Source of the DNA: a virus | Direction: 5' to 3' (one strand) | Length of the DNA: 20,153 nucleotides | IMG/VR virus record: IMGVR_UViG_3300047673_000229 | Span: 1-20,153 of that record | Part shown: positions 1,582-17,785 of the stretch, piece after piece | Layout of the letters: each line of letters starts with the position of its first letter | Position numbering within the stretch: the first letter of the stretch is position 1 | Position numbers and translations under genes: made by a program | The notes under the pieces: generated by a model | What the model saw: only the letters and a program-made list of their open reading frames with translations | Told to the model about the DNA's origin: nothing | The model's database searches: none

Positions 1582-1627
1582 CGGGAAATCCCTTCGCTCA
1601 CAAGCAGTCTACGGGTGTTCGGGTGTT

Positions 1628-2469: not shown

Positions 2470-2471
2470 CG

Positions 2472-2693
2472 TTATTGCTTGTTGCGCTCGCGCGGCTTCT
2501 GCTCGGCGGCCGGCTCGGATTGGGGCTGCTCCTGCTCGGGCTTCGGTTCGGTGCCAACACGTTCCACGAAGGGGCCCAGCTTGCTGGCCACATCGTCATC
2601 GATGTCGACAATTTCATCTGAAGGCTTCGTGTGGAAGATGATCTTGCTGCCCTTCACATACGAGGTTGGCTTGACCACTCGATACTTGCCCAT
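2472..2693 (-). CDS. Small structural-operon protein of unknown function, 73 aa
   Basis: Encodes 73 residues from ATG 2693. The first 45 residues (MGKYRVVKPTSYVKGSKI, then IVDIDDDVASKLGPFVERVG) look like a small beta-rich fold. The last 28 are a Pro/Glu/Gln/Lys-rich disordered tail. Small proteins of this kind between head closure and gp10-like genes are common in actinophages, but no function can be assigned here. It is spaced 12 nt from the preceding gene and 2 nt from the following one, within the head-tail joining cluster. Confidence 0.7.
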   Translation of the reverse strand: MGKYRVVKPTSYVKGSKIIFHTKPSDEIVDIDDDVASKLGPFVERVGTEPKPEQEQPQSEPAAEQKPRERNKQ

Positions 2694-2705
2694 GATGCTT
2701 GCCTT

Positions 2706-3068
2706 TCAGCCGATCTGTTTCTTAGAAATGATAGTCGCTTTGAACGGACTACCATCTAGGTCGTCGTGCGGCCGGATGCCGCCCTCTATTTGGTACTCTT
2801 GGCCGTTGATCTCGATGACGCCGTCGGGCGGCATCGAGATGATTGCCGCCAAGAGAGTGTTGTCGTACTCCATCAACGGCATAGTGGTACGCCACCACTC
2901 TGTGGCGATATCCAGATTGGCGTCGATCATCTCCTGAAACGCCATTGGGCGGTGACGGCAGCCTGGCGCATCCACGGAGATGGGGGTACGCGCGTACTCG
3001 CCCAATTCGTCTGGCACACCAGTGTTTACGTACCTGGTCAAGGTGACTACAGCGGTCCCGAAAGGCAT
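2706..3068 (-). CDS. Head closure (stopper)-like protein
   Basis: From ATG 3068 this encodes 120 residues (starts MPFGTAVVTLTRYVNTG). The ATG overlaps the TAA of the adaptor gene by one base (TAATG), which favours it over the frame's upstream extension to 3104. The sequence has the usual layout of head closure proteins: an N-terminal strand, a middle segment with CRHRPMAFQEMIDANLDI, and a C-terminal OB-like part (GVIEINGQEYQIEGGIRP). It probably seals the portal-adaptor complex after packaging and forms the tail docking surface. The assignment rests mainly on position after the adaptor. Confidence 0.65.
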   Translation of the reverse strand: MPFGTAVVTLTRYVNTGVPDELGEYARTPISVDAPGCRHRPMAFQEMIDANLDIATEWWRTTMPLMEYDNTLLAAIISMPPDGVIEINGQEYQIEGGIRPHDDLDGSPFKATIISKKQIG

Positions 3069-3676
3069 TACATGAACTCCAACGGTGGCAGCTGATAACC
3101 ACACAGAATACTGCCCGCTGAGAACAACACCTCTTCAGCCATGGCCGTGTACGGATTTCCGAAGCCGAGTTGCACATCGTCAACGCGCAACGTGGTCTGG
3201 CCGAATGTGCTGGCGCCAGTGGACGCTTTCACTGGCAGGGTTGACATTTGGTCGACCATCGACAGAATGCCTTCGCGCCAGTCGACGGCCTCGGCTTCGG
3301 TGAAGCCGTGATTCATTACGATTTCGAGACCACTGAACTGGTCAGTCCACCATGTGCGATCTTTCTTGCGCAGTGTTACGCGCTTACGCAACAGCGGACC
3401 CCCGCCGGCCGAAATGGCGATGTTAGTCGGATCCACCGCACTGCCGTCCTCGGTGATCGAGGTCAGTGCGACAACTTTCATCGTCGGCAGGAACAGAATG
3501 CTGCTGTCCGGGCCGTCGATGGTCATCGTTTCCGTTTTGACTGGCGAGACGTGCCAGCCGCAGTGATTGCGGGCTATCTGCAGGGCAGCGGCGAGCATCC
3601 GTTTGACTTCAGCGTCATCGCCATCGAGGCGACCCTCGGTGAAGTTGGTGACGTCGCCACCCTGCAGGTCTGCCAT
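3068..3676 (-). CDS. Head-to-tail adaptor (HK97 gp6/SPP1 gp15-like)
   Basis: The 202-residue product has the pattern of connector proteins that dock under the portal. There is a helical N-terminal half (DDAEVKRMLAAALQIARNHCGWHV), then beta strands with FLPTMKVVALTSITEDG, the LRKKDRTWWTD hairpin, and a second helix that includes DWREGILSMVDQMS. It begins 3 nt after the probable decoration gene ends and its stop overlaps the next start, so it is translated as part of the head-completion block. Family assignment is fairly safe from the motif layout and order. Confidence 0.8.
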   Translation of the reverse strand: MADLQGGDVTNFTEGRLDGDDAEVKRMLAAALQIARNHCGWHVSPVKTETMTIDGPDSSILFLPTMKVVALTSITEDGSAVDPTNIAISAGGGPLLRKRVTLRKKDRTWWTDQFSGLEIVMNHGFTEAEAVDWREGILSMVDQMSTLPVKASTGASTFGQTTLRVDDVQLGFGNPYTAMAEEVLFSAGSILCGYQLPPLEFM

Positions 3677-3679
3677 CAG

Positions 3680-4321
3680 CTACGTGAGCCGCTTCCAGGT
3701 CACGCTGCCGTCGGTCACCGTGGCGCCCACCGCGGGCAGGGTCGGCACTGAACTGCTCGAAGTGCCCGCGACAGTGGCCTCATACACCTGGCCGGCCTTG
3801 TTGCCTTGAGTGGTCGTCCCGGCTACTACGGTGCCGCCGGAGACGTCGGGGCTACCCGCGACTACAGCGATCTGGCCGACGTTGCCCTGCTCGGACTGAA
3901 TGGTGACGTTGTAGGGGCCGGTGCCGGTCACCGTCACATCACCCGGGTCAACATTGGGCAGTGCGACGATCGCGTTCTGAATGTTGGTTGCACTCAGGCC
4001 GCTGATGGGGATATTGGCCGTCGTCTGCGTGTCGCCTTTCAGCGTCACTGCCAGCTTTGTGTTGCCACCGGTGGCCGTCACCGTCAGGGTCTGCACCTCG
4101 TCGGTGCCCTTTACCTTCACCCGCTGACCCACCGTGTAAGCAGTGGAGTTGGCGCGGTCAGGCGGAGGGAATGACGGGTTGTTGATAAGTGCCACGCCAG
4201 CGTAGTCCTTATCGCTGGCCGTCACCGCGCGACCGAGATAATCGGTGGCGTTCGACGAGCCCGGATTGTCGTTCTGAAGTGCCCGGCCGAGCGAGTCGCC
4301 GAGCTTCGTGGTGGTCGTCAT
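3680..4321 (-). CDS. Probable head decoration protein
   Basis: This 213-residue protein lies between capsid and adaptor genes. Residues 1-50 are Asn/Asp/Ser-rich. Residues about 60-165 form a beta domain with the pattern TVTATGGNTKLAVTL, NIQNAIVALPNVDPGDVTVTG, GPYNVTIQ. That pattern (an alternating strand followed by a short helix carrying IQ-A-ALP) recurs in actinophage surface and minor structural proteins. The C-terminus (QVYEATVAGTSSSSVPTLP, then TVTDGSVTWKRL) matches a common short beta motif of decoration and fibre proteins. The start ATG 4321 has AAGGAC upstream. It could instead be a minor capsid fibre. Role inferred. Confidence 0.6.
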   Translation of the reverse strand: MTTTTKLGDSLGRALQNDNPGSSNATDYLGRAVTASDKDYAGVALINNPSFPPPDRANSTAYTVGQRVKVKGTDEVQTLTVTATGGNTKLAVTLKGDTQTTANIPISGLSATNIQNAIVALPNVDPGDVTVTGTGPYNVTIQSEQGNVGQIAVVAGSPDVSGGTVVAGTTTQGNKAGQVYEATVAGTSSSSVPTLPAVGATVTDGSVTWKRLT

Positions 4322-4324
4322 GAA

Positions 4325-4567
4325 TCAGTCCTTTTTGTCGAGTGCAGACTTGAACGCCGTTTTCTTCGCCGGAGCGGCTTTCTTGGGGTCCGACTCCGAT
4401 TCCGGCTCGGCCTCGGGCTCGGGCTTCTCGTCAGGCGCCGACTTCTCGTCGTCGTCGGACTTCAACTCAGCCTTGGCCGCTGACTTGCGTGCACGCTTCG
4501 GCCCGGCGTTGCCGGGGTCGGCATCGTGCAGTACCGACCCCAGCTTCTCGCCGTTGCGAACGAACAC
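4325..4567 (-). CDS. Charged, low-complexity protein downstream of capsid
   Basis: Starts at GTG 4567, directly after the capsid TAA (TAAGTG), and encodes 80 residues. Residues 1-22 (MFVRNGEKLGSVLHDADPGN) look ordered. The rest is a Lys/Glu/Asp/Ala/Pro-rich tail, with runs such as KPEPEAEPESESDPKKAA, and is surely disordered. The position suggests a part in head assembly, for example binding capsid or the next structural protein through the N-terminal patch. No known family is recognised. Confidence 0.65.
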   Translation of the reverse strand: MFVRNGEKLGSVLHDADPGNAGPKRARKSAAKAELKSDDDEKSAPDEKPEPEAEPESESDPKKAAPAKKTAFKSALDKKD

Positions 4568-5818
4568 TTACGCCGCCACCAGCGGGACGATCGCGTCGTC
4601 GTTGATCATCAGCGGAGTGAAGTAGCCCAGATAGGCCACCTGCACACCGGCCACCGACGGCTCAACCGCCTGCAGCGTGCCGACGCGCTGCTCGTACACC
4701 TCGAGCGCCGCGGTGCTGAACAGGAACGCCTCACCCGAGGACAGTCCGGCCGACATCACCAGGCTGACGCCCGAGATGGTGCCCATGGCGCCCTGTGCGA
4801 AGCTGTTGGCGTTGAAACCGGCCGACTGTGCGTTGAGCGGGTTCACCGGGGCGAACAGGCGACCGAAGGCACCCAGGCGATCCGGCGCTACGGCGAGCAC
4901 CAAGCGCCCCTGGCCGCGGACCGCGGTGTAGGCCACAGCGGCTGCGTTCCATATCGCACCACTGATTTGGTTGGCGATCGTGTCGCCGGCTGATGGCGTC
5001 TCGTCGTAGTTGACCGCCGTAGTGGCCGTGGTGGCCAGCAGATCGCAGGTGGCCGCCTCGGTCTCGATGGCGTACTGCGCCGCGAGGTCGTTGACGATCA
5101 GATCCAGCGCCGCGGGGGTGCTGAAGTCGATGTTCTGGCGTGACACGTTGACGTAGCCACCGTAGGTGACAGCCTCAGCCGTCAACCGATCGATGACCAT
5201 CTTCTGGCTGGTGAGCTCCGACTTCTCATCGGTCTTCCCGCCGGCTGCGCCCTGCTTGCCGACCGCGGTGTGCTGCGTAACGCGGGGGCGGTGGAACGTG
5301 GCCGATGTCAGCGGCCGGGGGCCCAGCGTCGACACCAGCGGTCGTGCCGCATCGATGAAGTTGATGACCTCGCCCACGACCGGATCGGGGATAAGGCCGA
5401 GGTTGTCCGACGTCTTCTGGTGGGCCGCGGCGCGGTAGTAGGTCTCGAGCCGGTCGCCCGCTTCGCGGTTGCCGTTGTGGGCGTTCCAGATATCGAGAAT
5501 GTACTCGCCACCGGAACGGTATTCGACCTCACCGGTGACCGGCTTGCCCTTGTACTGCTGGACGGCCTGGTCGACGGCGGTCGACATACTGCGGGTCTCG
5601 AAGGCTTCGCGGTTGATGCCTTCGATCTGCTCGAGCTGGCCCTTGATCGAACCCATACGCGAACGCGCTTCGGTAAGGATCTCGGACTCGCTCTCGTCGA
5701 GGTCGCGTCCGCCGGCGTTGGCGCGCTGAATGATGCCGTTGACCAGCGTGGTCTTCTCGTCGAGCTCTGTCTGAAGGCGCCGGATCATCTCGTCCTGCGC
5801 GGTAACTGCGGTGGGCAT
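4568..5818 (-). CDS. HK97-fold major capsid protein with N-terminal scaffold domain
   Basis: From ATG 5818 this encodes 416 residues. An N-terminal coiled coil (about 8-72, with RRLQTELDEKTTLVNGIIQR) is the scaffold-like delta domain, normally removed by the protease encoded just upstream. The HK97 core follows: YILDIWNAHNGN region, GLIPDPVVGEVINFIDAARPLV (N-arm and spine), TFHRPRVTQ, then an E-loop and P-domain, and a C-terminal VGTLQAVEPSVAGVQVAYLG. The longer frame back to 5902 adds an unlikely 28 residues (HHFDARKPFGHKPIHTH), while ATG 5818 has AGGAAAGG upstream. The protein forms the icosahedral shell. The family is secure. Confidence 0.93.
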   Translation of the reverse strand: MPTAVTAQDEMIRRLQTELDEKTTLVNGIIQRANAGGRDLDESESEILTEARSRMGSIKGQLEQIEGINREAFETRSMSTAVDQAVQQYKGKPVTGEVEYRSGGEYILDIWNAHNGNREAGDRLETYYRAAAHQKTSDNLGLIPDPVVGEVINFIDAARPLVSTLGPRPLTSATFHRPRVTQHTAVGKQGAAGGKTDEKSELTSQKMVIDRLTAEAVTYGGYVNVSRQNIDFSTPAALDLIVNDLAAQYAIETEAATCDLLATTATTAVNYDETPSAGDTIANQISGAIWNAAAVAYTAVRGQGRLVLAVAPDRLGAFGRLFAPVNPLNAQSAGFNANSFAQGAMGTISGVSLVMSAGLSSGEAFLFSTAALEVYEQRVGTLQAVEPSVAGVQVAYLGYFTPLMINDDAIVPLVAA

Positions 5819-5968
5819 GGTTGCCTGACCTTTCCTGATATGGGTGTGTATGGGTTTGTGCCCAAACGGCTTACGCGCATCGAAATGATGCAGATGACCC
5901 AAACAGTCAGAGTGCGCTCAACCAGCGCCCCAGCCCAAACGGCTGATTATCGGCAGTTTAGCAGCGAA
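5819..5968 (-). promoter_or_regulatory. 150-bp non-coding leader of the capsid gene, with repeats
   Basis: This is the only gap over 100 bp inside the structural operon. The 12-mer gcccaaacggct occurs at 5860-5871 and 5933-5944, with a shorter relative (cccaaac) near 5898. GTTTG-tgcc-CAAAC at 5854-5867 can form a small hairpin. The ribosome site AGGAAAGG of the capsid gene is at the near end. No convincing promoter was found, but the placement suggests extra control of capsid expression, either a promoter or RNA-level control. Confidence 0.4.
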
Positions 5969-6892
5969 TTAGGCAGATGATGTATTAGTCCGGCCATTAG
6001 CCCACTGCATAATCGGATCATTGATGAACTGATCCATCAGTGGTGTTGCAAGCGGACTTGCGATGCTCGGATCGTCCTCGCTGCGCACTGAAAGAATGCG
6101 AGCGCCGCTGTAGGCCGGTTCGGCGACGAACGACAGATGATGCAGGAAAGCCCGGTCGATGCGACGTGTCTTCGTGTAACGATCAAGCCGCTGATCGCGA
6201 TTAGGATTCTTGATCTGGAATCCCACGCTCGGCGACACCGCTCGCTCACTAGCCAATTCCAGCGTGTCATTTCCGATAGATGTCTTCGCCACCTGCACCT
6301 TGGTAACCAGGCCCTCTTCGCCGTCGACAGTGCCTGATCGTGCCTCGACGATACGGCCGATCAGTTGCCCGTTGTCGTGATTCGGGTTAGGGATGACCAG
6401 CGATGCTGTCGCGGGAATGCTGCGCGCCCGTGGGCTGGTCAACCATTTGTCGAGACCGTCGAAAGCGGTGCGGGAAAACACTTCGTTCCACATGTCGTTG
6501 TTGAACATGACCGCGGCCGGCTGCTCATAAGGAACGGCGATCAGGGTGATGGTGCGATCGGGAAAACTGACACCGTCGATCGCGACATTGGAGCTTCGCG
6601 TCTCCACCTCGGTTGAGATCTTGGGCACCTCGTCGCTGCGGTTTTCGGTGCTGTTGCGATCCTTCTCGGCTGCGGCGTCACACTCGGCCAGGATTGCCTT
6701 ATCGCCATGCTCGTTAGCCCATGCCCGGACTTTTGCGATGATCTTCGCCGGGTCAGGGGCGTGTCCGCGCAGTTGTAGCGCATCGTGTGCGCTTTTATGG
6801 TCGAACACCGGATACTCGCCATGAGATCCGCCGTGGGTATCGCGAGCCTTTTGACTCGGGGCGCCCGATGGGGTCCGCATTGCATCAGCCAT
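5969..6892 (-). CDS. Prohead maturation protease (HK97 type, U35-like)
   Basis: The 307-residue protein has two parts. Residues 25-78 (EYPVFDHKSAHDALQLRGH, then a KIIAKVRAWANEHG helix) resemble a small domain found fused to actinophage capsid proteases. Residues about 90-270 form the protease domain: TRSSNVAIDG, ITLIAVPYEQPA, then the catalytic His in NPNHDNGQLIGRI (H172) and catalytic Ser in AVSPSVGFQI (S222), followed by HHLSFVAEPAYSGA. It should cleave the scaffold domain of the capsid protein during head maturation. The start overlaps the portal stop by one base (TAATG). No separate scaffold gene follows, fitting the scaffold segment on the capsid protein itself. Confidence 0.88.
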   Translation of the reverse strand: MADAMRTPSGAPSQKARDTHGGSHGEYPVFDHKSAHDALQLRGHAPDPAKIIAKVRAWANEHGDKAILAECDAAAEKDRNSTENRSDEVPKISTEVETRSSNVAIDGVSFPDRTITLIAVPYEQPAAVMFNNDMWNEVFSRTAFDGLDKWLTSPRARSIPATASLVIPNPNHDNGQLIGRIVEARSGTVDGEEGLVTKVQVAKTSIGNDTLELASERAVSPSVGFQIKNPNRDQRLDRYTKTRRIDRAFLHHLSFVAEPAYSGARILSVRSEDDPSIASPLATPLMDQFINDPIMQWANGRTNTSSA

Positions 6893-8139
6893 TAGTCCGC
6901 ACTTCCTGTCAGGGCTTGCGCCGCCGTACCTGCGGTGCTTCCGTAATATCGTTCCATAATTCTGATCTCATCAATGGTGAGAGCTCCGATACCGCCCGTT
7001 TCTACCGGTCCGAGCTCTTTGTAGATTGCCGCGCGCTTATCCAGCGGCAGCCGGGTGTAGTCGTCGCGGTTCAATTCGACCGACTGTCCTAACGGTAGGA
7101 ATTTGCCCGAAATCGAATCCATCACCATTTTTGATTTCGGCCGCAGGCTTGAACGGTCGTGGAAGTCGAACAAATCGGAGATGTTGCTGTAGGTCAGGCT
7201 GCCGCTGGCGCCCGCGAGCCCGACCAGAAACGGGGGGATGCCGAGCAATACGGCGATGCGCGACTCGCTGAACTGCGACAATTCCAGCAATGCCATCTCT
7301 TTGGCGTCCATGGTGCGGGCCTGATTGAGCGTCGCGCCGCCCGACACCAGTGCAGGCTGGCCGGCGTTCTTTATGCGACTCTCAATCCACCGGTCCATCA
7401 AGTCTCGGCCTTCGGTTTCAGTGATGCGCCGCTGAAGTTCCATCCAATACAGCGGTACGCCGCCTGTCTGGGCCAGTGTCGTCGTGTATTTCTGCAACAA
7501 CGCGATCGTCGTCATCCGCGCGCCCGCTATCTCGAGGGGCCCAACGCCGCGGGGGTGCGTGGTGTTGGAACTGTAGCGAATGTGCAGAATCCGGTCGGTC
7601 ACATCCTCGGCGCCGATATGGTAGATCCGCTGGCCTCTCTCCATTTCGACGGTCATCAGCCACGGGGGGATCACCCGGAACGCCACCGGATAGTTATCAC
7701 TACCCATCGACCCCCATGGCATGACGAAGGCTTCGCCCAGCTGAAAATCCCAGAACAACTGTTTGAAGAATTCCCCCCAACAGTTATAAATTGTCGGATC
7801 CGGGTTTGACATCCACGTTTTCGGCTCGATGATCCGGCCATTCTTCAGCCGGTACACCGGCATCGCCGAAACGATGTTGCTGCTCATGTCCAGGCAGGCC
7901 CAGGCGATATCGGCCAGTCTGTTGATGCCCGTATTGACCTTCCAGTCCGGGGTCTGCCAGCCGGTCGGCCAGCCATCCCACGGGCTGACAAAGGGTAGTG
8001 GCAGAGCGCGGGCCTCCACTTTGTCGCCGGTGAATTCGAGGCCGTCGGGGTCGCCCGGGTTTAAGTCCTCGGGCCCGTTATCGTTGGGGGTTGTTGGCGT
8101 GTTGTTCAGCCAGTTGATCGCGCTCGTCCAAAAGGCCAC
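6892..8139 (-). CDS. Portal protein (HK97 family)
   Basis: The 415-residue protein starts at GTG 8139 with GGAAGG about 12 nt upstream. It has the portal pattern: NRLADIAWACLDMSSNIVSA and MPVYRLKNGR (clip and stem side), FFKQLFWDFQLGEAFVMP, VIPPWLMTVE, HIRYSSNTTHPRGVGPLEIA, then ALLELSQFSESRIAVLLGIP and PPFLVGLAG. As a dodecamer it would form the DNA gate at one capsid vertex and dock terminase during packaging. It follows terminase after a 38-nt gap that holds no supported gene and directly precedes the protease. It is close to 400 residues, normal for the family. Confidence 0.92.
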   Translation of the reverse strand: MAFWTSAINWLNNTPTTPNDNGPEDLNPGDPDGLEFTGDKVEARALPLPFVSPWDGWPTGWQTPDWKVNTGINRLADIAWACLDMSSNIVSAMPVYRLKNGRIIEPKTWMSNPDPTIYNCWGEFFKQLFWDFQLGEAFVMPWGSMGSDNYPVAFRVIPPWLMTVEMERGQRIYHIGAEDVTDRILHIRYSSNTTHPRGVGPLEIAGARMTTIALLQKYTTTLAQTGGVPLYWMELQRRITETEGRDLMDRWIESRIKNAGQPALVSGGATLNQARTMDAKEMALLELSQFSESRIAVLLGIPPFLVGLAGASGSLTYSNISDLFDFHDRSSLRPKSKMVMDSISGKFLPLGQSVELNRDDYTRLPLDKRAAIYKELGPVETGGIGALTIDEIRIMERYYGSTAGTAAQALTGSAD

Positions 8140-8177
8140 TTACGCTACCAACCTTCCCGCCATCGTCCCATGATAAA

Positions 8178-10760
8178 TCACATGATGAATGGTAGGGGTT
8201 CCTCGGCCAAACCCCATCTATATAGCGCACCCGCCATGGCTACGGCCGGGCTGATGTCGATGTCGGTGTCCACCTTATCTTCGCGGCGGTCGAATGAACG
8301 TACCTCGCCTGTCTGAAGAAAACGCGATTTTGCGTTGGCCAGCGCGAACGTCAATTCTGGCTGCCCGGCATGGGCAACCGTTCCATGCTTGATGGCTTTC
8401 TGCAGATTGCCGTAGGCGGTGGACATATCGGCCTGCGACAGCGTTTTATATTCGATCATCGCTTTGGTTAAATCGGTTTCGAATACTTTGCCTGCACCCG
8501 TGATCGACACCTCGACGATGTCATGTTCCTTCATCAGCTTCTCGACCTGCTTGACCACTCCGGCGGTACCCGGGAACGACTTCGTCATCACCAGCACCCG
8601 CGCATCGTCAGCGGATGAATCCAGTGGTAGATCGGTGGCCATGCCGATCGATGCCCAGCGACCGTTGGGGCTGGCGTCGAGCACCAACACCGCGCGGTCG
8701 GGTTCTTCGGCTTCGACAACCAGATCCCCCCAGCGGCTCATGTTGAAGTCAGATTCGCTGTCTTCGTCATAGAGGCCCAGGCCCTCCCGGCGCCAGCCGT
8801 CGTCATTGAGCTTTCGACGCAGGCGCATGAACGCCTGTGCCGGTGTGCGATGTGGGTAGGACGGGTTGTGCAGCCACTGATCGCGGTCATCCAGATTGCA
8901 GCCGTTGTCAGCGCCAATCTCTGCCCACACCAGATCCTCGGTCTCGACCTGCATCGGGCCGTCAGGGCCACCTGCCCATGCCTCTTCACGGCTACGTATC
9001 CACTGCTCTGAGTTGTCCTCGGGCTTCGGCGGGGTGCCTGCATAGACGTGGATGCCCAGATTCGAGGTGTTCAGCGTGGCCAGCATGTTCTGCATTGCCC
9101 GCTCGCTCAAGATCTGGCCCTCGTCAGACATCAGAATGTCGACACCGGGAACGCCTCGACCAAACCCCCGCTCACGGGCGCCGAACAGGATGCGTGAACC
9201 ATTATGGAATTCAACAGCTTCATCCCCGGAACCGGTAAGCACCCGCTTGATGAGCGGCTTCACCTTCGCGCGGGCGGCGAACGCCTGCATCGATTGGAAT
9301 GTCTCTTCGTGCGTGTTGTGGGTTGGTATCAGATCGCGTCCAGCAAGGAATAAACCATCGTCTGCTGCGACCTTGATGCAACGTACCGGCCGAGACGCTA
9401 CCGGCTGAATCGAATCGATGGTGGTAGTGAATCGCCCATTGTTGTTATCAACTTCGCCGACTCGAACAGCCTTACGCTGCAATCGAAATGGCACCATTCC
9501 GTCAGACTGTTTTGGTGTGAAGGTTACCCGCCATACCGGACCATGTTTCTGTTCGTTCAGCCTTGCCTTATCCTCGATAATCGTGGCTCGCCAACCGAGC
9601 GACCGGGCAAGAAACAGGACGGATTCGCTAAGCTGCCGAGTCGTCGATGTGAAGTAGGCATTTCCCTGAGCGTTGATACTTCCATCGGTGTCCATCAGCC
9701 CTTGTAGTAGCGCCAAGCGCTGGGATGTCGCGGCGGTGAGGTATTCGTCGGGGACATGCTTGTTCCCTAAGACGCCGATCGCCGTTAGCTTTCCGGCCAG
9801 GGAGCGAGACAGATGACCAGCATTGCCTGGTGCTTTGATGGCAATACGCCATGCTCGGTTAGCGGGTTTCCGAGCGACGGTCAGGTACCCCGTCTTACCG
9901 ATTTCGGTGCACCAATGGGTCAGATCTTCAGTCGCGCATGTTAGACAAGCGGCCGTGCTACTGCCGTCTCCAAGCCATGCCCCCAGCAAGTATGGATCGA
10001 CAGACAATTGGCGTTCTGGCAGGTCAGCTAAGCATTTCTGTTGCGGCAATGCGAATCGGTTACGCCCTCGGGGCGACTTCAGGCCAGCATCGTGCATGGC
10101 TTTCGTGGTCAGGACTACAGGCGGTCCCTGCCAGCGACGGCGATTCGGCGGGGAGCCGGACGAAAGTTTGTAGTTGGCGTCCGTGACAGTCCAGAGATGG
10201 CCGGCATCTGCAATTAACGATCGCCCGTCGCTCATTTGAACTTCGTAGCAGTCGTTGCCGATCATCACATCCTTGACGGCTTCTACCGCAACAGTCGCAC
10301 CGGAAGGATGAAAAATTTCATCCCCCACGCGAATGTCAGCCATAGTCGTCCACCCACGGTTGGCCGTTAGAATCTCAGTGCTGCAATCCAAGGCTTTCGA
10401 GTGATGCGCGGACCAAATAGTCAGTAGGCCAGGGTATTTGACACTCAAGCCGAAGAATGCGCTGGCGAAAAAGTAGGTCTTTCCAACCTGGCGCATTGCC
10501 GAAAGATGAAAGCCGCCCACAGTGTGGACGATGATGTTCTCGGCATCTTTAGCCAGTAGTAGTTGTCCAAGGCCGTGCTGCCAGCCGTCGAACTCGATAC
10601 CCATCTGGTCGCGGCAGATCACATTGGCGATGTGATCCCACTCAGACGAGACGATCCGTGATTTCGGATAGGCCAGTTTCTTGGTGACCTCCGATAGTCG
10701 GCGCTTAGACCGATCGGGGATCCCAGCCGCCCGCGGGCGAGTCAGTGTTGGTGTTGCCAC
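8178..10760 (-). CDS. Terminase large subunit, interrupted by an intein
   Basis: The 860-residue precursor has 503 residues of terminase once the intein (126-482) is removed. The ATPase part carries a Walker A-like SAMRQVGKT (87-95), Walker B VDILMSDEG (540-548) and a coupling motif YAGTPP (573-578). The nuclease part carries LVLDASPNG (692-700) and DTDIDISPAVAMAGALYRWG (831-850), the acidic patch pattern of RNase H-like terminase nucleases. It packages DNA into the prohead and cuts it. GTG 10760 lies 56 nt inside the upstream gene, with GGAGGGCAGG at the right distance, and the downstream ATPase N-terminus reads well from there. An HNH gene shares the operon. The intein lies between Walker A and Walker B, so splicing must occur for activity. 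Confidence 0.95.
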   Translation of the reverse strand: MATPTLTRPRAAGIPDRSKRRLSEVTKKLAYPKSRIVSSEWDHIANVICRDQMGIEFDGWQHGLGQLLLAKDAENIIVHTVGGFHLSAMRQVGKTYFFASAFFGLSVKYPGLLTIWSAHHSKALDCSTEILTANRGWTTMADIRVGDEIFHPSGATVAVEAVKDVMIGNDCYEVQMSDGRSLIADAGHLWTVTDANYKLSSGSPPNRRRWQGPPVVLTTKAMHDAGLKSPRGRNRFALPQQKCLADLPERQLSVDPYLLGAWLGDGSSTAACLTCATEDLTHWCTEIGKTGYLTVARKPANRAWRIAIKAPGNAGHLSRSLAGKLTAIGVLGNKHVPDEYLTAATSQRLALLQGLMDTDGSINAQGNAYFTSTTRQLSESVLFLARSLGWRATIIEDKARLNEQKHGPVWRVTFTPKQSDGMVPFRLQRKAVRVGEVDNNNGRFTTTIDSIQPVASRPVRCIKVAADDGLFLAGRDLIPTHNTHEETFQSMQAFAARAKVKPLIKRVLTGSGDEAVEFHNGSRILFGARERGFGRGVPGVDILMSDEGQILSERAMQNMLATLNTSNLGIHVYAGTPPKPEDNSEQWIRSREEAWAGGPDGPMQVETEDLVWAEIGADNGCNLDDRDQWLHNPSYPHRTPAQAFMRLRRKLNDDGWRREGLGLYDEDSESDFNMSRWGDLVVEAEEPDRAVLVLDASPNGRWASIGMATDLPLDSSADDARVLVMTKSFPGTAGVVKQVEKLMKEHDIVEVSITGAGKVFETDLTKAMIEYKTLSQADMSTAYGNLQKAIKHGTVAHAGQPELTFALANAKSRFLQTGEVRSFDRREDKVDTDIDISPAVAMAGALYRWGLAEEPLPFIM
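9315..10385 (-). mobile_element. LAGLIDADG homing-endonuclease intein in terminase
   Basis: Residues C126 to N482 of the terminase frame form a 357-residue intein. The N-terminal splice block is CSTEILTANRGWTTMADIRV, starting with the nucleophilic Cys. Block B contains SLIADAGHLWTV. The two dodecapeptides are DPYLLGAWLGDGS (256-268) and LLQGLMDTDGSI (351-362), so the homing endonuclease appears intact. The C-terminal end is RCIKVAADDGLFLAGRDLIP then THN, followed by Thr483 as the C-extein nucleophile. Flanking exteins read SKALD / THEETF. The coding frame runs through without interruption. Splicing should restore the ATPase domain. Confidence 0.95.
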
Positions 10761-11055
10761 TGTTATTGATCCTGCCCTCCTGACGCTGTCTTTCCTCCAT
10801 GCTAGTGACCTCCGCGGAGAACTGTTGCAGCCGGTTGGTTAGCGCAGCTACATCCCGCGCTGCACAATCAGGGTCCATTACATGCTGGTGGATCTTCTGC
10901 AACGCTGCCCGCATCATCGCCAGATGGTCGTTGTCGGTGGTGAGCCAGCCACCATTGTCGAGCTCGGCGGTCAGCGCATTGCACGCCTTCACCAGCACCT
11001 TGTGATCCTTGATGAACGGGTCTAGCGCCTTGGCGATCACTTCGTATGCGCTCAT
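10705..11055 (-). CDS. Probable terminase small subunit
   Basis: This 116-residue, mostly helical protein lies directly before the large subunit and overlaps it by 56 nt. The segment DCAARDVAALTNRLQQFSAEV (residues about 64-84) matches the pattern RDLAALxRRLxxIxxEI found near the end of many actinophage small terminase proteins, and the N-terminus (MSAYEVIAKALDPFIKDHKV) is helical. No obvious helix-turn-helix was seen. The small subunit recognises the packaging site on phage DNA and activates the large subunit. The start overlaps the previous stop (ATGA). The assignment rests on position and this pattern. Confidence 0.55.
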   Translation of the reverse strand: MSAYEVIAKALDPFIKDHKVLVKACNALTAELDNGGWLTTDNDHLAMMRAALQKIHQHVMDPDCAARDVAALTNRLQQFSAEVTSMEERQRQEGRINNSGNTNTDSPAGGWDPRSV

Positions 11056-12689: not shown

Positions 12690-12921
12690 CAATCGCCTCC
12701 ATCACATATTTCTGCGAGTTCTGCAGCGCGAACTTCAAACCCAATACCACCGTTATCTGCTGCTCACTCAACTCGCCAGAATCAACCAGTGCGGTAGCCA
12801 TATCTTCCGCCGCTTGTAGGCCCTTGCAGAAACCACGATTCCATTGCTCCATCAGGCCAGCGGAGATCTGCCGCTGAAGATTCTCAAGAGGCTGCTGTGT
12901 TGGTTCAGGCTCAGACACCAT
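12679..12921 (-). CDS. Small helical protein of the MVSE family, 80 aa
   Basis: The start is taken at ATG 12921, because the sequence around it (MVSEPEPTQQ) repeats at the next gene's start; an earlier in-frame ATG would add 24 residues of junction-derived sequence. The body is helical (LENLQRQISAGLMEQWNRGF, then EDMATALVDSGELSEQQ). The end (YVMEAIDGA) sits inside the next gene's start. A ribosome site is poor (AGGTGG three bases before the ATG), so translation probably depends on the preceding gene, whose stop is 7 nt away. Function unknown. Confidence 0.6.
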   Translation of the reverse strand: MVSEPEPTQQPLENLQRQISAGLMEQWNRGFCKGLQAAEDMATALVDSGELSEQQITVVLGLKFALQNSQKYVMEAIDGA

Positions 12922-12928
12922 CAGCCAC
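12897..12928 (-). repeat. Junction module of the leftward small genes, copy 2
   Basis: These 32 bp match 13166-13197 with two mismatches, and 13382-13405 (24 bp) with one over most of its length; 12673-12690 is a diverged relative. Each copy holds the start of a gene (MVSE in the leftward sense) and, at three sites, the final codons of the preceding gene (ADGV or IDGA then stop). Confidence 0.85.
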
Positions 12929-13189
12929 CTAGAAACGCATTTGTTCATCGAAAGCGGCGATCTGCTCGTCTTCCCAGTCATCCAACCCCTCACAGAGCTT
13001 CGTCATCTCAAGTAGCTGGTCACACACCTTTGCTATGAGCGGAAACAGTTCCGTCTCAATCTTGTATTGGGCAGCCATCATGTCGGCTTGAATCTTCATC
13101 ACTGAGCGCCAGATAGCGTCCTCAATGACTTCTTTGGCGCGCTCAATGACCTCGTCGCCGTCTGGTGTTGGTTCAGACTCAGACACCAT
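12929..13189 (-). CDS. Small helical protein of the MVSE family, 86 aa
   Basis: From ATG 13189 the product starts MVSESEPTPDGDEVIERAKE and is almost wholly helical, with a long heptad-like middle (IQADMMAAQYKIETELFPLI) and an acidic end (EGLDDWEDEQIAAFDEQMRF). The ATG lies 11 nt inside the end of the preceding gene, a geometry repeated at two other junctions in this array. A coiled-coil or antiparallel helix pair is likely. No family known. The longer frame upstream (to 13258) is the reading of the preceding gene's end in another frame. Confidence 0.6.
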   Translation of the reverse strand: MVSESEPTPDGDEVIERAKEVIEDAIWRSVMKIQADMMAAQYKIETELFPLIAKVCDQLLEMTKLCEGLDDWEDEQIAAFDEQMRF

Positions 13190-13197
13190 CAGCCGCC
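13166..13197 (-). repeat. Junction module of the leftward small genes, copy 3
   Basis: Same module as 12897-12928, here with an intact ATG and an 11-nt overlap of the neighbouring genes. Confidence 0.85.
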
Positions 13198-13394
13198 AAT
13201 ACAAACGGCGTGCCTGCATCGGCGAATGCTGTCCTGATGTGCATATCAACCCATGCAACGGTGCCGGGCGCTTTACTCAGCCATGTGTTGCTCGCCTCGC
13301 CCCACTTGAACAAATAGCCCGTGTGAGACTGCCACACCTGACTGCGTTGATTCACGCCCAACGCAATCCTGGTTTCGATCCCAGACTCAGACAC
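13179..13394 (-). CDS. Small protein with GTG start and shared ETRIALG module, 71 aa
   Basis: The start codon expected from the repeated junction is ACG here (13397-13395) instead of ATG, so GTG at 13394 is the likely start. The product begins VSESGIETRIALGVNQRSQV, then has a strand-rich middle (HTGYLFKWGEASNTWLSKAP) and ends AGTPFVLAADGV. ETRIALG is encoded by a module also present, on the other strand, at 16682-16703. The stop overlaps the next gene by 11 nt. Function unknown. The much longer frame back to 13595 lies antisense-like within the preceding gene and is discounted. Confidence 0.5.
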   Translation of the reverse strand: MSESGIETRIALGVNQRSQVWQSHTGYLFKWGEASNTWLSKAPGTVAWVDMHIRTAFADAGTPFVLAADGV

Positions 13395-13405
13395 CGTCAG
13401 CCACC
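13382..13405 (-). repeat. Junction module copy 4, with ACG in place of ATG
   Basis: Same module; the codon matching ATG in the other copies is ACG (13397-13395), and GTG (13394-13392) directly follows it. Confidence 0.75.
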
Positions 13406-14893: not shown

Positions 14894-14922
14894 TTGACGT
14901 CAGCAATGGCAATGATTTACAG
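14894..14922 (+). promoter_or_regulatory. Rightward promoter for the whiB-like operon
   Basis: TTGACG (14894-14899) is followed after 17 nt by TTACAG (14917-14922) or, at 16 nt, TTTACA. The -35 is part of the 8-bp palindrome TGACGTCA (14896-14903). A start of transcription around 14928-14931 would coincide with ATG 14931, so the first gene may be leaderless; no ribosome site is visible before it. The -10 match is weak. Confidence 0.45.
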
Positions 14923-14930
14923 TGGCAAAT

Positions 14931-15281
14931 ATGGGACGGACGCCAAACCTGAAAATCAGCCAATGGTTCAAGCAAGGCGGCGTATTTCTCGAGGGATGGG
15001 AAGACCTGGCAAACTGCCGGGGGCGCCATGACCTACCGTGGACCCCTAATTTCCGACCTAGCTTTGAAGATCAGCGCGCCATGGCCGACGTGTGCAGCGA
15101 CTGTCCCGTCATGGCTAAGTGTGCGCAGCGCGGGCTCGGCGCTGTCGGTGGGTTTTACGCTGGCGTGTGGATCCCTTGGAAAACATTGACGCCGGACACC
15201 GACGACACTCGCGCTATCCGCATCCACGGCCGTCGCAAGCTCAAGGTTCTCGCTGATGAGAGTGAACGCTGTGAGGCTTGA
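14931..15281 (+). CDS. WhiB-like iron-sulfur transcription factor
   Basis: From ATG 14931 this encodes 116 residues. It has the four-cysteine WhiB cluster site: NCRG (C29), then CSDCPVMAKC (C55, C58, C64), with FRPSFEDQ between them as in the family. The loop after the last Cys is VGGFYAGVWIPW instead of the usual G-[VI]-W-G-G turn. The C-terminus is basic (RIHGRRKLKVL), the DNA-binding tail. WhiB proteins carry a 4Fe-4S cluster, bind the main sigma factor and alter transcription; phage copies such as the one of TM4 can act on host genes. GTG 14922 is an alternative start, but ATG 14931 fits a leaderless start. Being first in the plus array, it is well placed to set the switch between the divergent operons. 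Confidence 0.9.
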   Translation: MGRTPNLKISQWFKQGGVFLEGWEDLANCRGRHDLPWTPNFRPSFEDQRAMADVCSDCPVMAKCAQRGLGAVGGFYAGVWIPWKTLTPDTDDTRAIRIHGRRKLKVLADESERCEA

Positions 15282-15474
15282 ACGCACCGGCCATATCCAT
15301 CTCGCAGATGGCTCTATTCTCCGGATTGATTACGAGTGCAAACACTACTGCGCATCCTGGTACACCCCAACGGCCTCACTGAAAGCGTATGCGGTCGGGC
15401 CGCTGGACGCGATGACCGTTGTAGTTGCAGCATGGGCAGACGCCTTTAATGAATCGAGAGGGCACGAATGCTGA
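15256..15474 (+). CDS. Small unknown protein, 72 aa
   Basis: ATG 15256 overlaps the whiB-like gene by 26 nt; GTG 15262 or GTG 15271 are alternatives with smaller overlaps. The product has a strand pattern (RTGHIHLADGSILRIDYECK), then a CKHYCASWYTP stretch and a helix (AVGPLDAMTVVVAAWADAFN). The two cysteines with His could bind metal. Its last bases overlap the next gene by 7 nt. Family not recognised. Confidence 0.6.
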   Translation: MRVNAVRLERTGHIHLADGSILRIDYECKHYCASWYTPTASLKAYAVGPLDAMTVVVAAWADAFNESRGHEC

Positions 15475-15788
15475 CCCCCACAGAGCAGGTAGCCGCCGTA
15501 GCTGAGGCAATACACCGGGCGCAAACCCGCTATGTGCTAGGTCCGTGGGAGACATTGGATGAGCGCGACCAGGAAGCCTTGTGTAGACAGGCTCAGGCTG
15601 CTATCGACGCTCTCGGACTCACCGAGATTTGGTGCATCCCAACCACCAAATGTAAAGACGGGCAGTCTCGTCGACCACTGAACCATTTCGACAGCTTCGA
15701 GGCTGCTAAGAAGTGCCGCGAGGAATGGCTGCCTGAAGCGCAGATTTACTCACAGTGGGTGTCTGCCTGGTCGGAGGTAGACCAGTGA
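15468..15788 (+). CDS. Modular small protein carrying 5' and both 3' modules, 106 aa
   Basis: ATG 15468 is preceded by GAGAGGG. It starts with the recurrent module (MLTPTEQVAAVAEAIHRAQT), then a middle helix (ETLDERDQEALCRQAQAAID) and the shared phrase ALGLTE, an unrelated insert (WCIPTTKCKDGQSRRPLNHF), and ends with WVSAWSEVDQ, shared with the gene at 16319. The pattern VAEAI...W...R..Y/A...AAIDALGL is one seen in small actinophage proteins of unknown role. The insert, roughly residues 53-95, separates the two halves that are adjacent in the paralogue. Its stop forms GTGA with the next gene. Confidence 0.7.
   Translation: MLTPTEQVAAVAEAIHRAQTRYVLGPWETLDERDQEALCRQAQAAIDALGLTEIWCIPTTKCKDGQSRRPLNHFDSFEAAKKCREEWLPEAQIYSQWVSAWSEVDQ
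15594..15625 (+). repeat. Module repeat coding QAAIDALGLTE, copy 1
   Basis: The 32 bp at 15594-15625 are identical to 16427-16458. Both are in the same reading frame of their genes. Identity at every base, including silent positions, points to a recent duplication or gene conversion and not only to a conserved protein motif. Confidence 0.9.
15756..15788 (+). repeat. Gene-end repeat coding WVSAWSEVDQ, copy 1
   Basis: These 33 bp recur at 16529-16561 with one mismatch (gtaga/gtcga), again including the stop codon and the GTGA overlap. A third, shorter and frame-shifted copy lies at 16636-16658. Confidence 0.85.
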
Positions 15789-15856
15789 GTGAACCGAGAT
15801 ACATGAGCGCGCCCACTGGCTGCCTGAACAGTTCGATTTCCTGGCCCGACTACTGA
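15785..15856 (+). CDS. Possible 23-residue microprotein
   Basis: GTG 15785 overlaps the preceding TGA (GTGA) and the frame runs to TGA 15854-15856, giving MSEPRYMSAPTGCLNSSISW and a short end. The overlap geometry equals that of its neighbours, but the product is too short to judge. The next 54 bp (15857-15910) hold no supported gene, only a 17-codon frame at 15861. Confidence 0.35.
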   Translation: MSEPRYMSAPTGCLNSSISWPDY

Positions 15857-15910
15857 CAGGATGACAATGGCAATGATAGTGCTCCATTCTAAGATCGGAG
15901 CGGCGACGCG

Positions 15911-16132
15911 GTGACTGACATTATTGACCGGGTAGCGCAGGCGTTGTGGATTGCTGATGGCCCATGGCGGCAGCGTTCTCCATGGTCTGTTTCCGTACCG
16001 ACTTTATGGGCGGACGCCGACGACGGCGACCGGGACTTATACCGTAACAAGGCCAAGATTGTTATCGAACAATTAGTGGCCTCACTAGCAGATTGTTGCC
16101 GCGCTACTAAAGATGCTGAAGGGGCATCGTGA
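15911..16132 (+). CDS. MTD-start small protein, 73 aa
   Basis: GTG 15911 begins MTDIIDRVAQALWIADGPWR, which parallels the start of the gene at 16981 (MTDLTDRITEVL). It then has a short Asp-rich patch (ADADDGDRDLYRNKAKIVIE) and ends with a helix containing CC. The layout start helix, Trp/Arg turn, then a D-R-x-x-Y-R helix is a shape shared with the PTEQVAEAI proteins, so it is a likely distant paralogue. GGAG lies about 11 nt upstream. Its stop overlaps the next GTG. Confidence 0.65.
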   Translation: MTDIIDRVAQALWIADGPWRQRSPWSVSVPTLWADADDGDRDLYRNKAKIVIEQLVASLADCCRATKDAEGAS

Positions 16133-16326
16133 AACCCATCGAATGGCTATTTGTCATCGGCGGACTCACCTGGATTCTCGCCATGCTGTGGGAATGCCGC
16201 CACGAACTATCCAAGGATCCGATCAACCTGCCGGTAACAATTCTGCTGCTAGCGCCGATCGGGGTGGGGCTGCTGCCGATGTGGTACGGCATCAAGTATT
16301 CGTGGCGAAAGGTATCGAATGACTGA
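16129..16326 (+). CDS. Two-helix small membrane protein, 65 aa
   Basis: GTG 16129 overlaps the preceding TGA and has AAGGGG upstream. Residues 5-21 (EWLFVIGGLTWILAMLW) and 35-53 (PVTILLLAPIGVGLLPMWY) form two transmembrane helices separated by a charged loop (ECRHELSKDPI), so both ends likely face the same side. The C-terminus is basic (KYSWRKVSND). No family is known; holins have this topology, but it lies far from any lysis gene and the evidence is insufficient to call it one. Confidence 0.65.
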   Translation: MKPIEWLFVIGGLTWILAMLWECRHELSKDPINLPVTILLLAPIGVGLLPMWYGIKYSWRKVSND

Positions 16327-16561
16327 CTGTATCCCCACAGAGCAGGTAGCCGAAGCGATCGCAAACGAGTTTCGCAGGGTGCCGTGGATGCAGCGGTCCT
16401 ATCCAGACATGTTCAATGACATGGCCCAGGCTGCTATCGACGCTCTCGGACTCACCGAAGAGACCGGGCCAATGCTGACCGGCCACTTTGAAGGTACTAA
16501 CCACGGCGGCATCGTGCCAGGGCGCCGTTGGGTGTCTGCCTGGTCGGAGGTCGACCAGTGA
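16319..16561 (+). CDS. Modular small protein, 80 aa (paralogue of 15468 gene)
   Basis: ATG 16319 has AAAGG upstream. The product combines the start module (MTDCIPTEQVAEAIANEFRR), a middle (WMQRSYPDMFNDMAQAAIDA), the shared phrase LGLTE, a short variable part (HFEGTNHGGIVPGRR) and the end module WVSAWSEVDQ. It lacks the long insert of the gene at 15468. It overlaps the membrane protein gene by 8 nt. Two genes with the same start, middle and end but different inserts imply swapping of cassettes. Confidence 0.7.
   Translation: MTDCIPTEQVAEAIANEFRRVPWMQRSYPDMFNDMAQAAIDALGLTEETGPMLTGHFEGTNHGGIVPGRRWVSAWSEVDQ
16427..16458 (+). repeat. Module repeat coding QAAIDALGLTE, copy 2
   Basis: Identical over all 32 bp to 15594-15625. 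Confidence 0.9.
16529..16561 (+). repeat. Gene-end repeat coding WVSAWSEVDQ, copy 2
   Basis: Matches 15756-15788 at 32 of 33 positions, including stop codon. Confidence 0.85.
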
Positions 16562-16650
16562 GGTACCGATGGACTTGCCGATTCTGTGGGCGGATGAATG
16601 TCTACGGCGTGAATTGCCAATGTGGTCAACGTCCTCCTGGACGGAGGTAG
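16558..16650 (+). CDS. 30-residue zinc-knuckle-like microprotein
   Basis: GTG 16558 overlaps the preceding TGA. The product (starts MRYRWTCRFCGRMNVYGVN, then CQCGQRPPGRR) has CxxC and CxC about 10 residues apart, fitting a tiny zinc knuckle with a basic tail. Its last codons are a frame-shifted copy of the WSEVDQ gene-end module (see 16636-16658). A real gene is likely given the cysteine spacing and exact overlap, but it is short. Confidence 0.5.
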   Translation: MRYRWTCRFCGRMNVYGVNCQCGQRPPGRR

Positions 16651-16658
16651 ACCAGTGA
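16636..16658 (+). repeat. Frame-shifted relic of the gene-end module, copy 3
   Basis: Twenty-two of 23 bp match the end of the 15756-15788 repeat, but the frame in use here is shifted: bases that encode WSEVDQ elsewhere are read as PPGRR-stop. The copied GTGA still provides the start (16655) of the next gene. Confidence 0.7.
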
Positions 16659-16753
16659 CTGACTGTATCCCTACGGGGCAGGAAACGAGGATTGCATTAG
16701 GCGGTACGAACGCAAAGATCAACCCACACGTCAGAGTCGGGCGCTTTGCATAG
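16655..16753 (+). CDS. Short modular protein with start module and ETRIALG, 32 aa
   Basis: GTG 16655 begins MTDCIPTGQETRIALGGTNA and ends with INPHVRVGRFA. The first nine residues are the start module (with two changes), then ETRIALG, a phrase that is also the N-terminus of a leftward gene (13179-13394) and is encoded by a near-identical 22-bp stretch. The rest is unrelated. It may be a chimera in formation or decay. Confidence 0.4.
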   Translation: MTDCIPTGQETRIALGGTNAKINPHVRVGRFA

Positions 16754-16804
16754 CCACTAAGCCCGTCTAGTCGTGGTCGGTCTACAACAACAGGAGGAGC
16801 AGTA

Positions 16805-16975
16805 GTGGCCAAGACTGAGACGCAGCGAGCTGCAGATCGCGCCCGCGTTCGTCGAAATAGGCGCATCGAAAGATGGCAGCAAAAGGGACTTTGCCCTGAG
16901 TGTGTCAAGCTGCTAGATGCCGACCATGAAAGAAAGCAGCTATCTAGGCGCAACATTTCGGCTGTCCGAAAGTGA
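16805..16975 (+). CDS. Basic 56-residue protein with CPEC
   Basis: GTG 16805 has a strong GGAGGAG ribosome site. The product starts MAKTETQRAADRARVRRNRR and continues with a QQKGLCPECVKLLDAD part, ending in a basic tail. It is Arg/Lys-rich and has one CxxC; no further cysteine pair is present, so a zinc site would need His (ADHERK) or a dimer. Likely nucleic-acid-binding. It is preceded by a 51-bp gap that holds only the ribosome site. Its stop abuts the next start (TGATG). Confidence 0.6.
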   Translation: MAKTETQRAADRARVRRNRRIERWQQKGLCPECVKLLDADHERKQLSRRNISAVRK

Positions 16976-16980
16976 TGACG

Positions 16981-17352
16981 ATGACTGACCTCACCGATCG
17001 CATCACCGAAGTGCTGCGGCACCACGAATGCTGGCGATCATGGGGTGAAACCTCCGAGGGTCTGTGGTGCCCTGGCTGTAAACGGCGTTATCCCGAAGAC
17101 CGGTTCGCCGCGCATGTGGCTGAGCGGATAGCCGAAGCCCTTCCGCCCACACTGTCGCCGTCGCTGCTAGAGCAGTTACAGCCAGAAGGCAGTGACCTTC
17201 TGATTCAGAAAGCTAACTCCGATAACCTCGACTGGACTTGGCGCGTGCGTTATTGCAACGGAACTACCGGCCAGAGTGACACCCGCACAGGATCGTCGCT
17301 GCACGAGCTGCTATCTGGTTGGGCTGCGGGAGAGAAGGAGAGCACCGAATGA
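16981..17352 (+). CDS. MTD-start small protein with zinc-knuckle pair, 123 aa
   Basis: Three nested starts exist (GTG 16972, ATG 16975, ATG 16981); the last is chosen because it aligns with the start of the 15911 gene (MTDLTDRITEVL). After a helix comes HHECWRSWGE, then GLWCPGCKRRYPEDRFAAHV (CPGC and a downstream His), then VAERIAEALPPTLSPSLLEQ. The C-terminal third (SDLLIQKANSDNLDWTWRVR) is strand-rich and ends GEKESTE. The CPGCxxxxPxxxF-H pattern looks like a small zinc finger. The stop makes ATGA with the next gene. Confidence 0.6.
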   Translation: MTDLTDRITEVLRHHECWRSWGETSEGLWCPGCKRRYPEDRFAAHVAERIAEALPPTLSPSLLEQLQPEGSDLLIQKANSDNLDWTWRVRYCNGTTGQSDTRTGSSLHELLSGWAAGEKESTE

Positions 17353-17510
17353 CTGACCGTATCCCCACAGAGCAGGTAGCCTGCCCGGCATGTGGCGAGC
17401 AGGGAACGTACTGGGAAGACCGCATATCTGTTCACGACAGCATTGTCGGATTTGAAATTCGGGATGCCGGTATCGAGCATCCCAACGGAAAGGTTTGCAG
17501 AGAATGGTGA
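17349..17510 (+). CDS. Start-module protein with CPAC, 53 aa
   Basis: ATG 17349 overlaps the previous stop (ATGA) and has AAGGAG 9 nt upstream. It carries the intact start module (MTDRIPTEQVA), then directly CPACGEQGTYWEDRISVHDS and IEHPNGKVCREW. CPAC with the later Cys suggests a zinc site. Here the conserved module is joined to a completely different body from that at 16319. The longer upstream frame (17319) is just the tail of the preceding gene in another frame. Confidence 0.65.
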   Translation: MTDRIPTEQVACPACGEQGTYWEDRISVHDSIVGFEIRDAGIEHPNGKVCREW

Positions 17511-17540
17511 ACCCCCACAGAGCGGGTAGCCGAAGCGATC
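17505..17540 (+). repeat. Decayed start module between genes, copy 5
   Basis: The text after ATGGTGA at 17505 (acccccacagagcgggtagc, then cgaagcgatc) matches the start module, but in the module's frame it has no start and meets TAA at 17541-17543, giving only PTERVAEAI-stop. It lies between the stop at 17510 and the next ATG at 17543. Confidence 0.75.
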
Positions 17541-17542
17541 TA

Positions 17543-17785
17543 ATGACTACCGCTGATGTCCTCATCGATGTTGATTCGAGAGGGCGGACGAACTTGTCCA
17601 AGTTCTCGAAGGGAGCACGCTTCCTAGGACGGCAGGAGGAAGACGGCACGATCATCCTGGAGCCGGCTCGGATCGTGACGGCTGCTGAAGATCGTCTTCG
17701 GCGTAACCCTCATACCGTCGAGAAGCTGGAGAAGGCGCACGCGAATATCGACAACGCCGTAAAGCTCGACTTGGTAGAGGGCTAA
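17543..17785 (+). CDS. AbrB/antitoxin-like protein, 80 aa
   Basis: From ATG 17543 the product starts MTTADVLIDVDSRGRTNLSK and has VDSRGRTNLSKF, FLGRQEEDGTIILEPARIVT, then AAEDRLRRNPHTVEKLEKAH. The pattern of a short strand, a glycine-arginine turn and a strand pair with DGTIxLEPA is typical of AbrB/SpoVT-type swapped-hairpin DNA-binding domains found in actinobacterial antitoxins. No toxin gene is beside it. It may regulate transcription as a dimer. An upstream start at 17505 would include the decayed module and is less likely. Confidence 0.6.
   Translation: MTTADVLIDVDSRGRTNLSKFSKGARFLGRQEEDGTIILEPARIVTAAEDRLRRNPHTVEKLEKAHANIDNAVKLDLVEG

What the first reader, a model, noticed from the sequence alone, without database searches (positions are those of the whole stretch)
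15468..17545. Five copies of one gene-start cassette in front of unrelated small genes
The sequence for roughly MTD-x-IPTEQVAEAI begins or precedes genes at 15468, 16319, 16655 and 17349 and is a decayed remnant at 17511-17543. Behind it come four different bodies (helical with insert, helical short, ETRIALG, CPAC zinc). DNA identity includes silent sites, so this is recent copying. It looks like a system that moves a translation start plus an N-terminal peptide onto new bodies, which would make new small proteins quickly. The peptide itself may be a shared targeting or partner-binding tag.
Basis: partly seen in the sequence, partly recalled or inferred. Interest (0 to 1): 0.78.

Follow-up and report, generated by a model that had tools for sequence, protein, structure and literature searches.

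The report
Phage genes sharing copied start patches
A mycobacterial-type virus carries a run of very small genes whose beginnings, middles and ends repeat nearly letter for letter around otherwise different sequences; this looks like an unusually dense case of a known process, in which phages gain and swap small genes by recombining at short shared stretches, rather than a dedicated gene-tagging machine.

Summary
The repeats are real. Near-identical copies of a 5' patch lie at 15468, 16319, 17349 and 17511, with a weaker copy at 16655, far beyond chance and identical at silent sites. A middle patch (AQAAIDALGLTE) and a 3' patch (WVSAWSEVDQ, carrying a ribosome site and GTGA overlap) are copied too. 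The first two "unrelated bodies" are one family, also present three times in another virus. A second, unrelated gene-junction patch repeats on the minus strand. One body, probably two, carries a swapped start. The zinc body of 17349 has a homologue in phage WXIN with a different N-terminus. The ETRIALG stretch of 16655 recurs in a minus-strand gene that begins with the other patch. The shared peptide is predicted as helix 1 in one protein and as a strand in the zinc protein, so an autonomous tag is unlikely. The 5' patch carries no ribosome site, and no shuffling enzyme is visible. Best reading: tandem paralogues and unrelated small genes recombined at short boundary sequences; Island3/Brujita is a published precedent, re-read here. 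It is a dense variant of a known kind; a dedicated tag-shuffling system is unlikely but not excluded.

The parts
15468..15788 (+). Small gene A (106 aa): 5' patch + helical hairpin + insert + 3' patch
   Evidence: predicted helices 4-20 and 32-48 at pLDDT about 72-83
15474..15495 (+). 5' patch, copy 1 (short form MLTPTEQVA)
15590..15625 (+). Middle patch, copy 1 (AQAAIDALGLTE)
   Evidence: 97% to 16423-16458; 94% to virus G001
15756..15789 (+). 3' patch, copy 1: WVSAWSEVDQ stop, GGAGGT ribosome site, GTGA overlap
15911..16132 (+). Probable remote family member MTDIIDRVAQALW..., without patches
   Evidence: Alignment A3; inferred
16319..16561 (+). Small gene B (80 aa), paralogue of A
16316..16351 (+). 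5' patch, copy 2 (reference)
16423..16458 (+). Middle patch, copy 2
   Evidence: 97% over 35 nt to G001
16529..16562 (+). 3' patch, copy 2
16558..16650 (+). 30-aa zinc-ribbon-like ORF MRYRWTCRFCGRMNVYGVNCQCGQRPPGRR lying between two 3' patches
   Evidence: an overlapping frame ending SSWTEVDQ is also open
16626..16659 (+). 3' patch, copy 3, fused directly to a 5' patch
   Evidence: 76% to copy 1
16655..16753 (+). 32-aa ORF MTDCIPTGQ-ETRIALG...: 5' patch copy 3 on another body
16972..17352 (+). 126-aa gene, weak match to phrog_647 (zinc + helical small protein)
   Evidence: E 0.003
17349..17510 (+). 53-aa gene MTDRIPTEQVA + CPACG zinc-type body
   Evidence: Body 59% identical over 44 aa to phage WXIN protein WPH57804.1, E 3e-12
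17346..17381 (+). 5' patch, copy 4 (97% to copy 2)
17511..17543 (+). 5' patch, copy 5, untranslated remnant TPTERVAEAI-stop after the 17349 gene
13373..13405 (-). Minus-strand junction patch, copy 1 (KVADGV stop / VSESG start)
13165..13197 (-). Minus-strand junction patch, copy 2 (AADGV stop / VSESEPT start)
   Evidence: 94%
12897..12929 (-). Minus-strand junction patch, copy 3 (VSEPEPTQ start)
   Evidence: reference copy
13179..13394 (-). Gene N1 VSESGIETRIALGVNQ..., shares ETRIALG with 16655
   Evidence: 19 of 22 nt, the 3 differences at third codon positions

Best explanation
This is a fast-changing cluster of very small genes in an actinobacteriophage. It contains tandem paralogues of one small helical-hairpin family, mixed with unrelated small genes. 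Short stretches at gene starts, at the conserved core of the family, and at gene ends (where a ribosome site and stop/start overlap sit inside the last codons) act as recombination joints. Crossovers at these joints, by a phage or host general recombinase or by unequal crossing-over between paralogues, insert, delete and fuse genes while keeping translation starts intact. The shared gene start on the zinc and ETRIALG bodies is the product of such fusions. Shown here: the repeats, their silent-site identity, the lack of DNA similarity between patches, and the zinc body with another start in WXIN. Inferred: that recombination at the patches (not selection alone) made the pattern, and which recombinase acted.
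For: Patches 90-97% identical (z 6-9) while the segments between them in the same two genes show no significant DNA similarity (z 0.4 and 1.7). Silent-site identity above codon-usage expectation in all three patches (P 0.001-0.004). The middle patch is the only DNA match between this window and the otherwise unrelated 38-kb virus G001. Zinc body in WXIN starts MSNPWDDRIIPGVD; similarity is clear only from about the codon after PTEQVA onward. ETRIALG body under two different start patches in the window. Single small genes flanked by direct patch copies (16558-16650; 17349-17510; N1; N2), and the same layout twice in G001 (2242/2498 and 4167/4447). Near gene-start pairs at >=26/38 identity: 5 of 145 here, 5 of 1582 in the 13-record scan, 5.5e-5 of between-phage pairs. 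Published precedent: Island3 gp67/gp68 share their last 18 residues and about 60 bp of DNA, with one recombinant copy in Brujita (PMC3029335; sequences re-read); LRRHood's 1.35 kb flanked by 29-bp direct repeats.
Against: No close relative with an empty or alternative site was found: near-identical contigs L006 and L007 cover only window 208-10876, so no event is seen directly. The silent-site P values are modest individually and come from patches picked for similarity. The fragment shows no recombinase. Selection on translation initiation could also preserve junction patches. The junction detector's hits include some doubtful junctions and, through length and GC3 filters, it missed the window's own pairs, so the rate comparison is rough.
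Confidence: 0.72

Rival explanations
1. Ordinary tandem duplication of one gene family followed by divergence, with conserved motifs (first helix, AQAAIDALGLTE, WVSxWSEV) kept by selection on the protein; the patches are simply its conserved motifs.
For: 15468, 16319, probably 15911 and three genes of G001 are one family with this motif order; weak matches of both the window and G001 proteins to phrog_1091.
Against: Silent-site identity; differences within the 5' patch are replacements; patch present on two non-family bodies and on an untranslated remnant.
Confidence: 0.13
2. The patches are functional translation-initiation signals, like the Start Associated Sequences of Cluster K mycobacteriophages, spread and kept because they set expression.
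For: 3' patch and minus-strand patch each hold a ribosome site plus a stop/start overlap; SAS precedent (PMC3203893).
Against: The 5' and middle patches lie inside coding sequence and lack the ribosome site; few copies; two unrelated sequences in one phage; coding frame kept for several codons.
Confidence: 0.08
3. A dedicated system moves a start plus N-terminal peptide onto new bodies, the peptide being a shared targeting or partner-binding tag.
For: Two non-family bodies carry the peptide; copies look recent.
Against: Peptide is the family's native first helix, is predicted as a strand in the zinc protein, is truncated in 16655 and untranslated at 17511; other patches behave alike; no enzyme seen.
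Confidence: 0.05

Closest known systems
Boundary-sequence recombination in Cluster I mycobacteriophages (Island3 genes 67/68 versus Brujita 66; PMC3029335)
   Same: Adjacent different small genes share a C-terminal peptide and DNA stretch that ends in the ATGA stop/start overlap; explained by recombination between about 50-60 bp repeats.
   Different: There one pair and one 3' patch, with a relative showing the single-copy state; here 5', middle and 3' patches in 2-5 copies plus a second patch on the other strand, and no such relative.
LRRHood 1.35-kb insertion flanked by 29-bp direct repeats (PMC3029335)
   Same: Genes flanked by short direct repeats; single copy in relatives.
   Different: A multi-gene segment, not single small genes or N-terminal fusions.
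Start Associated Sequences of Cluster K mycobacteriophages (PMC3203893)
   Same: Short repeats at gene starts across different gene families.
   Different: SAS are 13 bp, noncoding, upstream of the start, 11-19 per genome; these are longer, coding, local and of several sequences.
Mobile regulatory cassettes of T4-type phages (Arbiol et al. 2010; text not held, known from citation and memory only)
   Same: Repeated cassettes between small genes linked to module shuffling.
   Different: Described (from memory) as promoter/stem-loop cassettes; no stem-loop or promoter was identified in these patches here.
phrog_1091 and phrog_647 (unknown function)
   Same: Weak profile matches to window small proteins.
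   Different: E-values 0.003-0.04, not firm membership.

Membership tests
Boundary-sequence-mediated gene gain/loss (Island3/Brujita type) | Near-identical DNA at ends or starts of adjacent different genes | tested here: met
Boundary-sequence-mediated gene gain/loss (Island3/Brujita type) | A close relative with the single-copy (empty) state | tested here: inconclusive
   L006/L007 are near-identical but end at 10876, before the region
Boundary-sequence-mediated gene gain/loss (Island3/Brujita type) | Inserted body has independent ancestry | tested here: met
   Zinc body in WXIN with another N-terminus
Cluster K SAS | 13-bp GGGATAGGAGCCC-type sequence just upstream of starts | tested here: not met
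   Start contexts read; no such sequence seen
Dedicated start/tag shuffling system | Recombinase, retroelement or homing enzyme tied to the patch | tested here: not met
   No such gene recognised next to the patches; the fragment is only 20 kb
Dedicated start/tag shuffling system | Peptide acts as an autonomous tag with one structure or partner | tested here: inconclusive
   Helix in 15468, strand in 17349, moderate-confidence models
phrog_1091 family | Profile match at a firm E-value | tested here: not met
   E 0.04 for both window and G001 proteins

The most novel reading that the evidence does not exclude
The phage has an active process that copies short gene-junction and gene-start patches within its own small-gene arrays, on both strands, to capture incoming reading frames under ready-made starts: a factory for new small proteins.
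Probability: 0.07. Interest if true: 0.8.

Novelty: new variant of a known kind. Interest (0 to 1): 0.38.

Why it matters
How phages keep producing small orphan genes is open. The boundary-sequence model is often set aside because most mosaic joints show no shared sequence (PMC3029335, PMC3233612). This array is a dense natural example, with several patch types and at least one body swap in about 5 kb, where the model could be tested by sequencing sister phages or by measuring excision between patches.

Tried and rejected
Exact and degenerate scans of IMG/VR for the 5' and 3' patches found no relatives (the hits are an unrelated protein that happens to hold PTEQVAEAI). Protein searches of IMG/VR, GTDB and phages with the 15468 and 16319 proteins found nothing direct. 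The middle-patch scan found only G001. blastn of the middle patch in phages gave chance-level hits. N1 has no phage homologue of note. Genus-level searches were not possible for a virus record. No Rfam, tRNA or clear promoter feature. The 'unrelated bodies' reading of 15468/16319 was rejected. The D6 repeat (13245/16718, 74%) was treated as probable chance.

Full report
WHAT THE WINDOW IS. The window is a 20,153-base virus record from IMG/VR. Its portal is about 57% identical to those of Mycobacterium phages prophiGD91-2 and MooMoo, so it is a mycobacterial-type siphovirus. Near-identical contigs from other samples (L006, L007) cover only 208-10876 and do not reach the region in question.

THE OBSERVATION. 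The 5' patch exists in five places. CCCCACAGAGCAGGTAGCC is exact at 15476, 16333 and 17363, and has one mismatch at 17513; 16652-16687 is 78% identical to the reference. The longest exact direct repeat in the region is 32 nt, against at most 15 in 200 shuffles. Within PTEQVA every codon is identical in the pairs tested, where 2.5 of 6 are expected (P about 0.004), and the few differences among the good copies change amino acids. The 17511-17543 copy is not a gene start: it follows the stop codon of the 17349 gene in the same frame and ends in TAA.

WHAT WAS MISSED. The genes at 15468 and 16319 also share a middle patch (AQAAIDALGLTE, 97% over 36 nt) and a 3' patch (WVSAWSEVDQ-stop, 97% over 34 nt). 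A third copy of the 3' patch at 16626 is joined straight to the 16655 start. The segments between patches show no significant DNA similarity (z 1.7 and 0.4, against 6-9 for patches). The 3' patch holds GGAGGT and the GTGA stop/start overlap, so it carries the next gene's ribosome site; the 5' patch does not, since its homology begins 2-3 nt before the start codon. On the minus strand an unrelated patch, GGTGGCTGATGGTGTCTGAG, recurs at three consecutive junctions, with two weaker look-alikes at 12678 and 18841.

THE BODIES. 15468 and 16319 are paralogues. A search with their alignment finds three members in virus G001 (E 1.9e-36, 7.5e-6, 5.3e-5; one G001 member was itself in the alignment, so the first value is by construction) and one in Gordonia phage Skog (5.7e-7). 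The members seen in full begin with, or fit, a VAxAI helix, so the shared peptide is the native first helix of this family. The model of 15468 shows a hairpin of helices 4-20 and 32-48 at pLDDT about 72-83, with the rest unreliable. The other two bodies really are different. The zinc body of 17349 matches a Mycobacterium phage WXIN protein (59% over 44 aa, E 3e-12) that begins MSNPWDDRIIPGVD. A DRI and a V can be aligned upstream, so part of the resemblance of that start may be native. The ETRIALG stretch of 16655 recurs in minus-strand gene N1 behind a different start patch, with 19 of 22 nt identical and the three differences at third codon positions; this is suggestive, not proof. In a single-sequence model of 17349 residues 2-11 form a strand (mean pLDDT 78).

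G001. The only DNA similarity between the window and this 38-kb virus is the middle patch (94-97% over 35-36 nt), with 10 of 12 codons identical where about 4.5 are expected (P 0.001). G001 also has two cases of a single small gene flanked by direct junction repeats, read by eye from the ORF list.

GENERALITY. An annotation-free junction detector on the window, G001 and eleven phages found gene-start pairs within 1.5 kb at >=26 of 38 identity in 5 of 1582 pairs, against 5.5e-5 of pairs between phages. Its filters missed the window's own cassettes. With gene starts set by hand the window has 5 of 145. The comparison is rough but suggests the window is unusually rich.

MECHANISM. The data fit recombination at short shared patches that serve as joints at starts, cores and ends. 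This is the boundary-sequence model. PMC3029335 reports what it calls the first mycobacteriophage example: Island3 genes 67 and 68 share their last 18 residues and about 60 bp, with one recombinant copy in Brujita. I re-read these sequences and the repeat also ends at the ATGA overlap. The same paper reports a 1.35-kb segment flanked by 29-bp direct repeats in LRRHood. The enzyme, and whether each patch was copied by recombination or kept by selection, are inferred.

NOVELTY. I rate this a new variant of a known kind: more patches, at starts as well as ends, on both strands, with at least one swapped start. A dedicated start-and-tag shuffling system is not needed by the data and has no identified machinery.

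Noticed in passing
window 8178-10760 (-): Terminase-like gene of 860 aa appears to contain an intein with a LAGLIDADG homing endonuclease domain.
   Followed up: partly
window 150-229: Tandem repeat of 37-bp period with a 43-nt exact repeat; the match of contig L007 ends at 208, inside it.
   Followed up: no
window 12678 and 18841 (-): Weaker look-alikes of the minus-strand junction patch at two more gene junctions.
   Followed up: partly
window 14922-15281 (+): WhiB-like transcription factor gene just upstream of the array.
   Followed up: no
window 17543-17785 (+): Gene matching phrog_19414, annotated as an antitoxin; 71% DNA identity to Gordonia phages.
   Followed up: no
window 16558-16658 (+): Two overlapping open frames: a 30-aa zinc-ribbon-like one and one ending SSWTEVDQ in the 3'-patch frame.
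   Followed up: partly
L037 2441, 2821, 3168 (phage WXIN): Three successive gene starts with similar junctions ending in AGCTACACCAT or ACCTACACCAT, perhaps tandem paralogues.
   Followed up: no
L002 5435-5467 and 11521-11553 (prophiGD91-2): A 33-nt gene-start context (TGAAACGGAGGATAATTGAGGTATG...) repeated, imperfectly, at two places.
   Followed up: no
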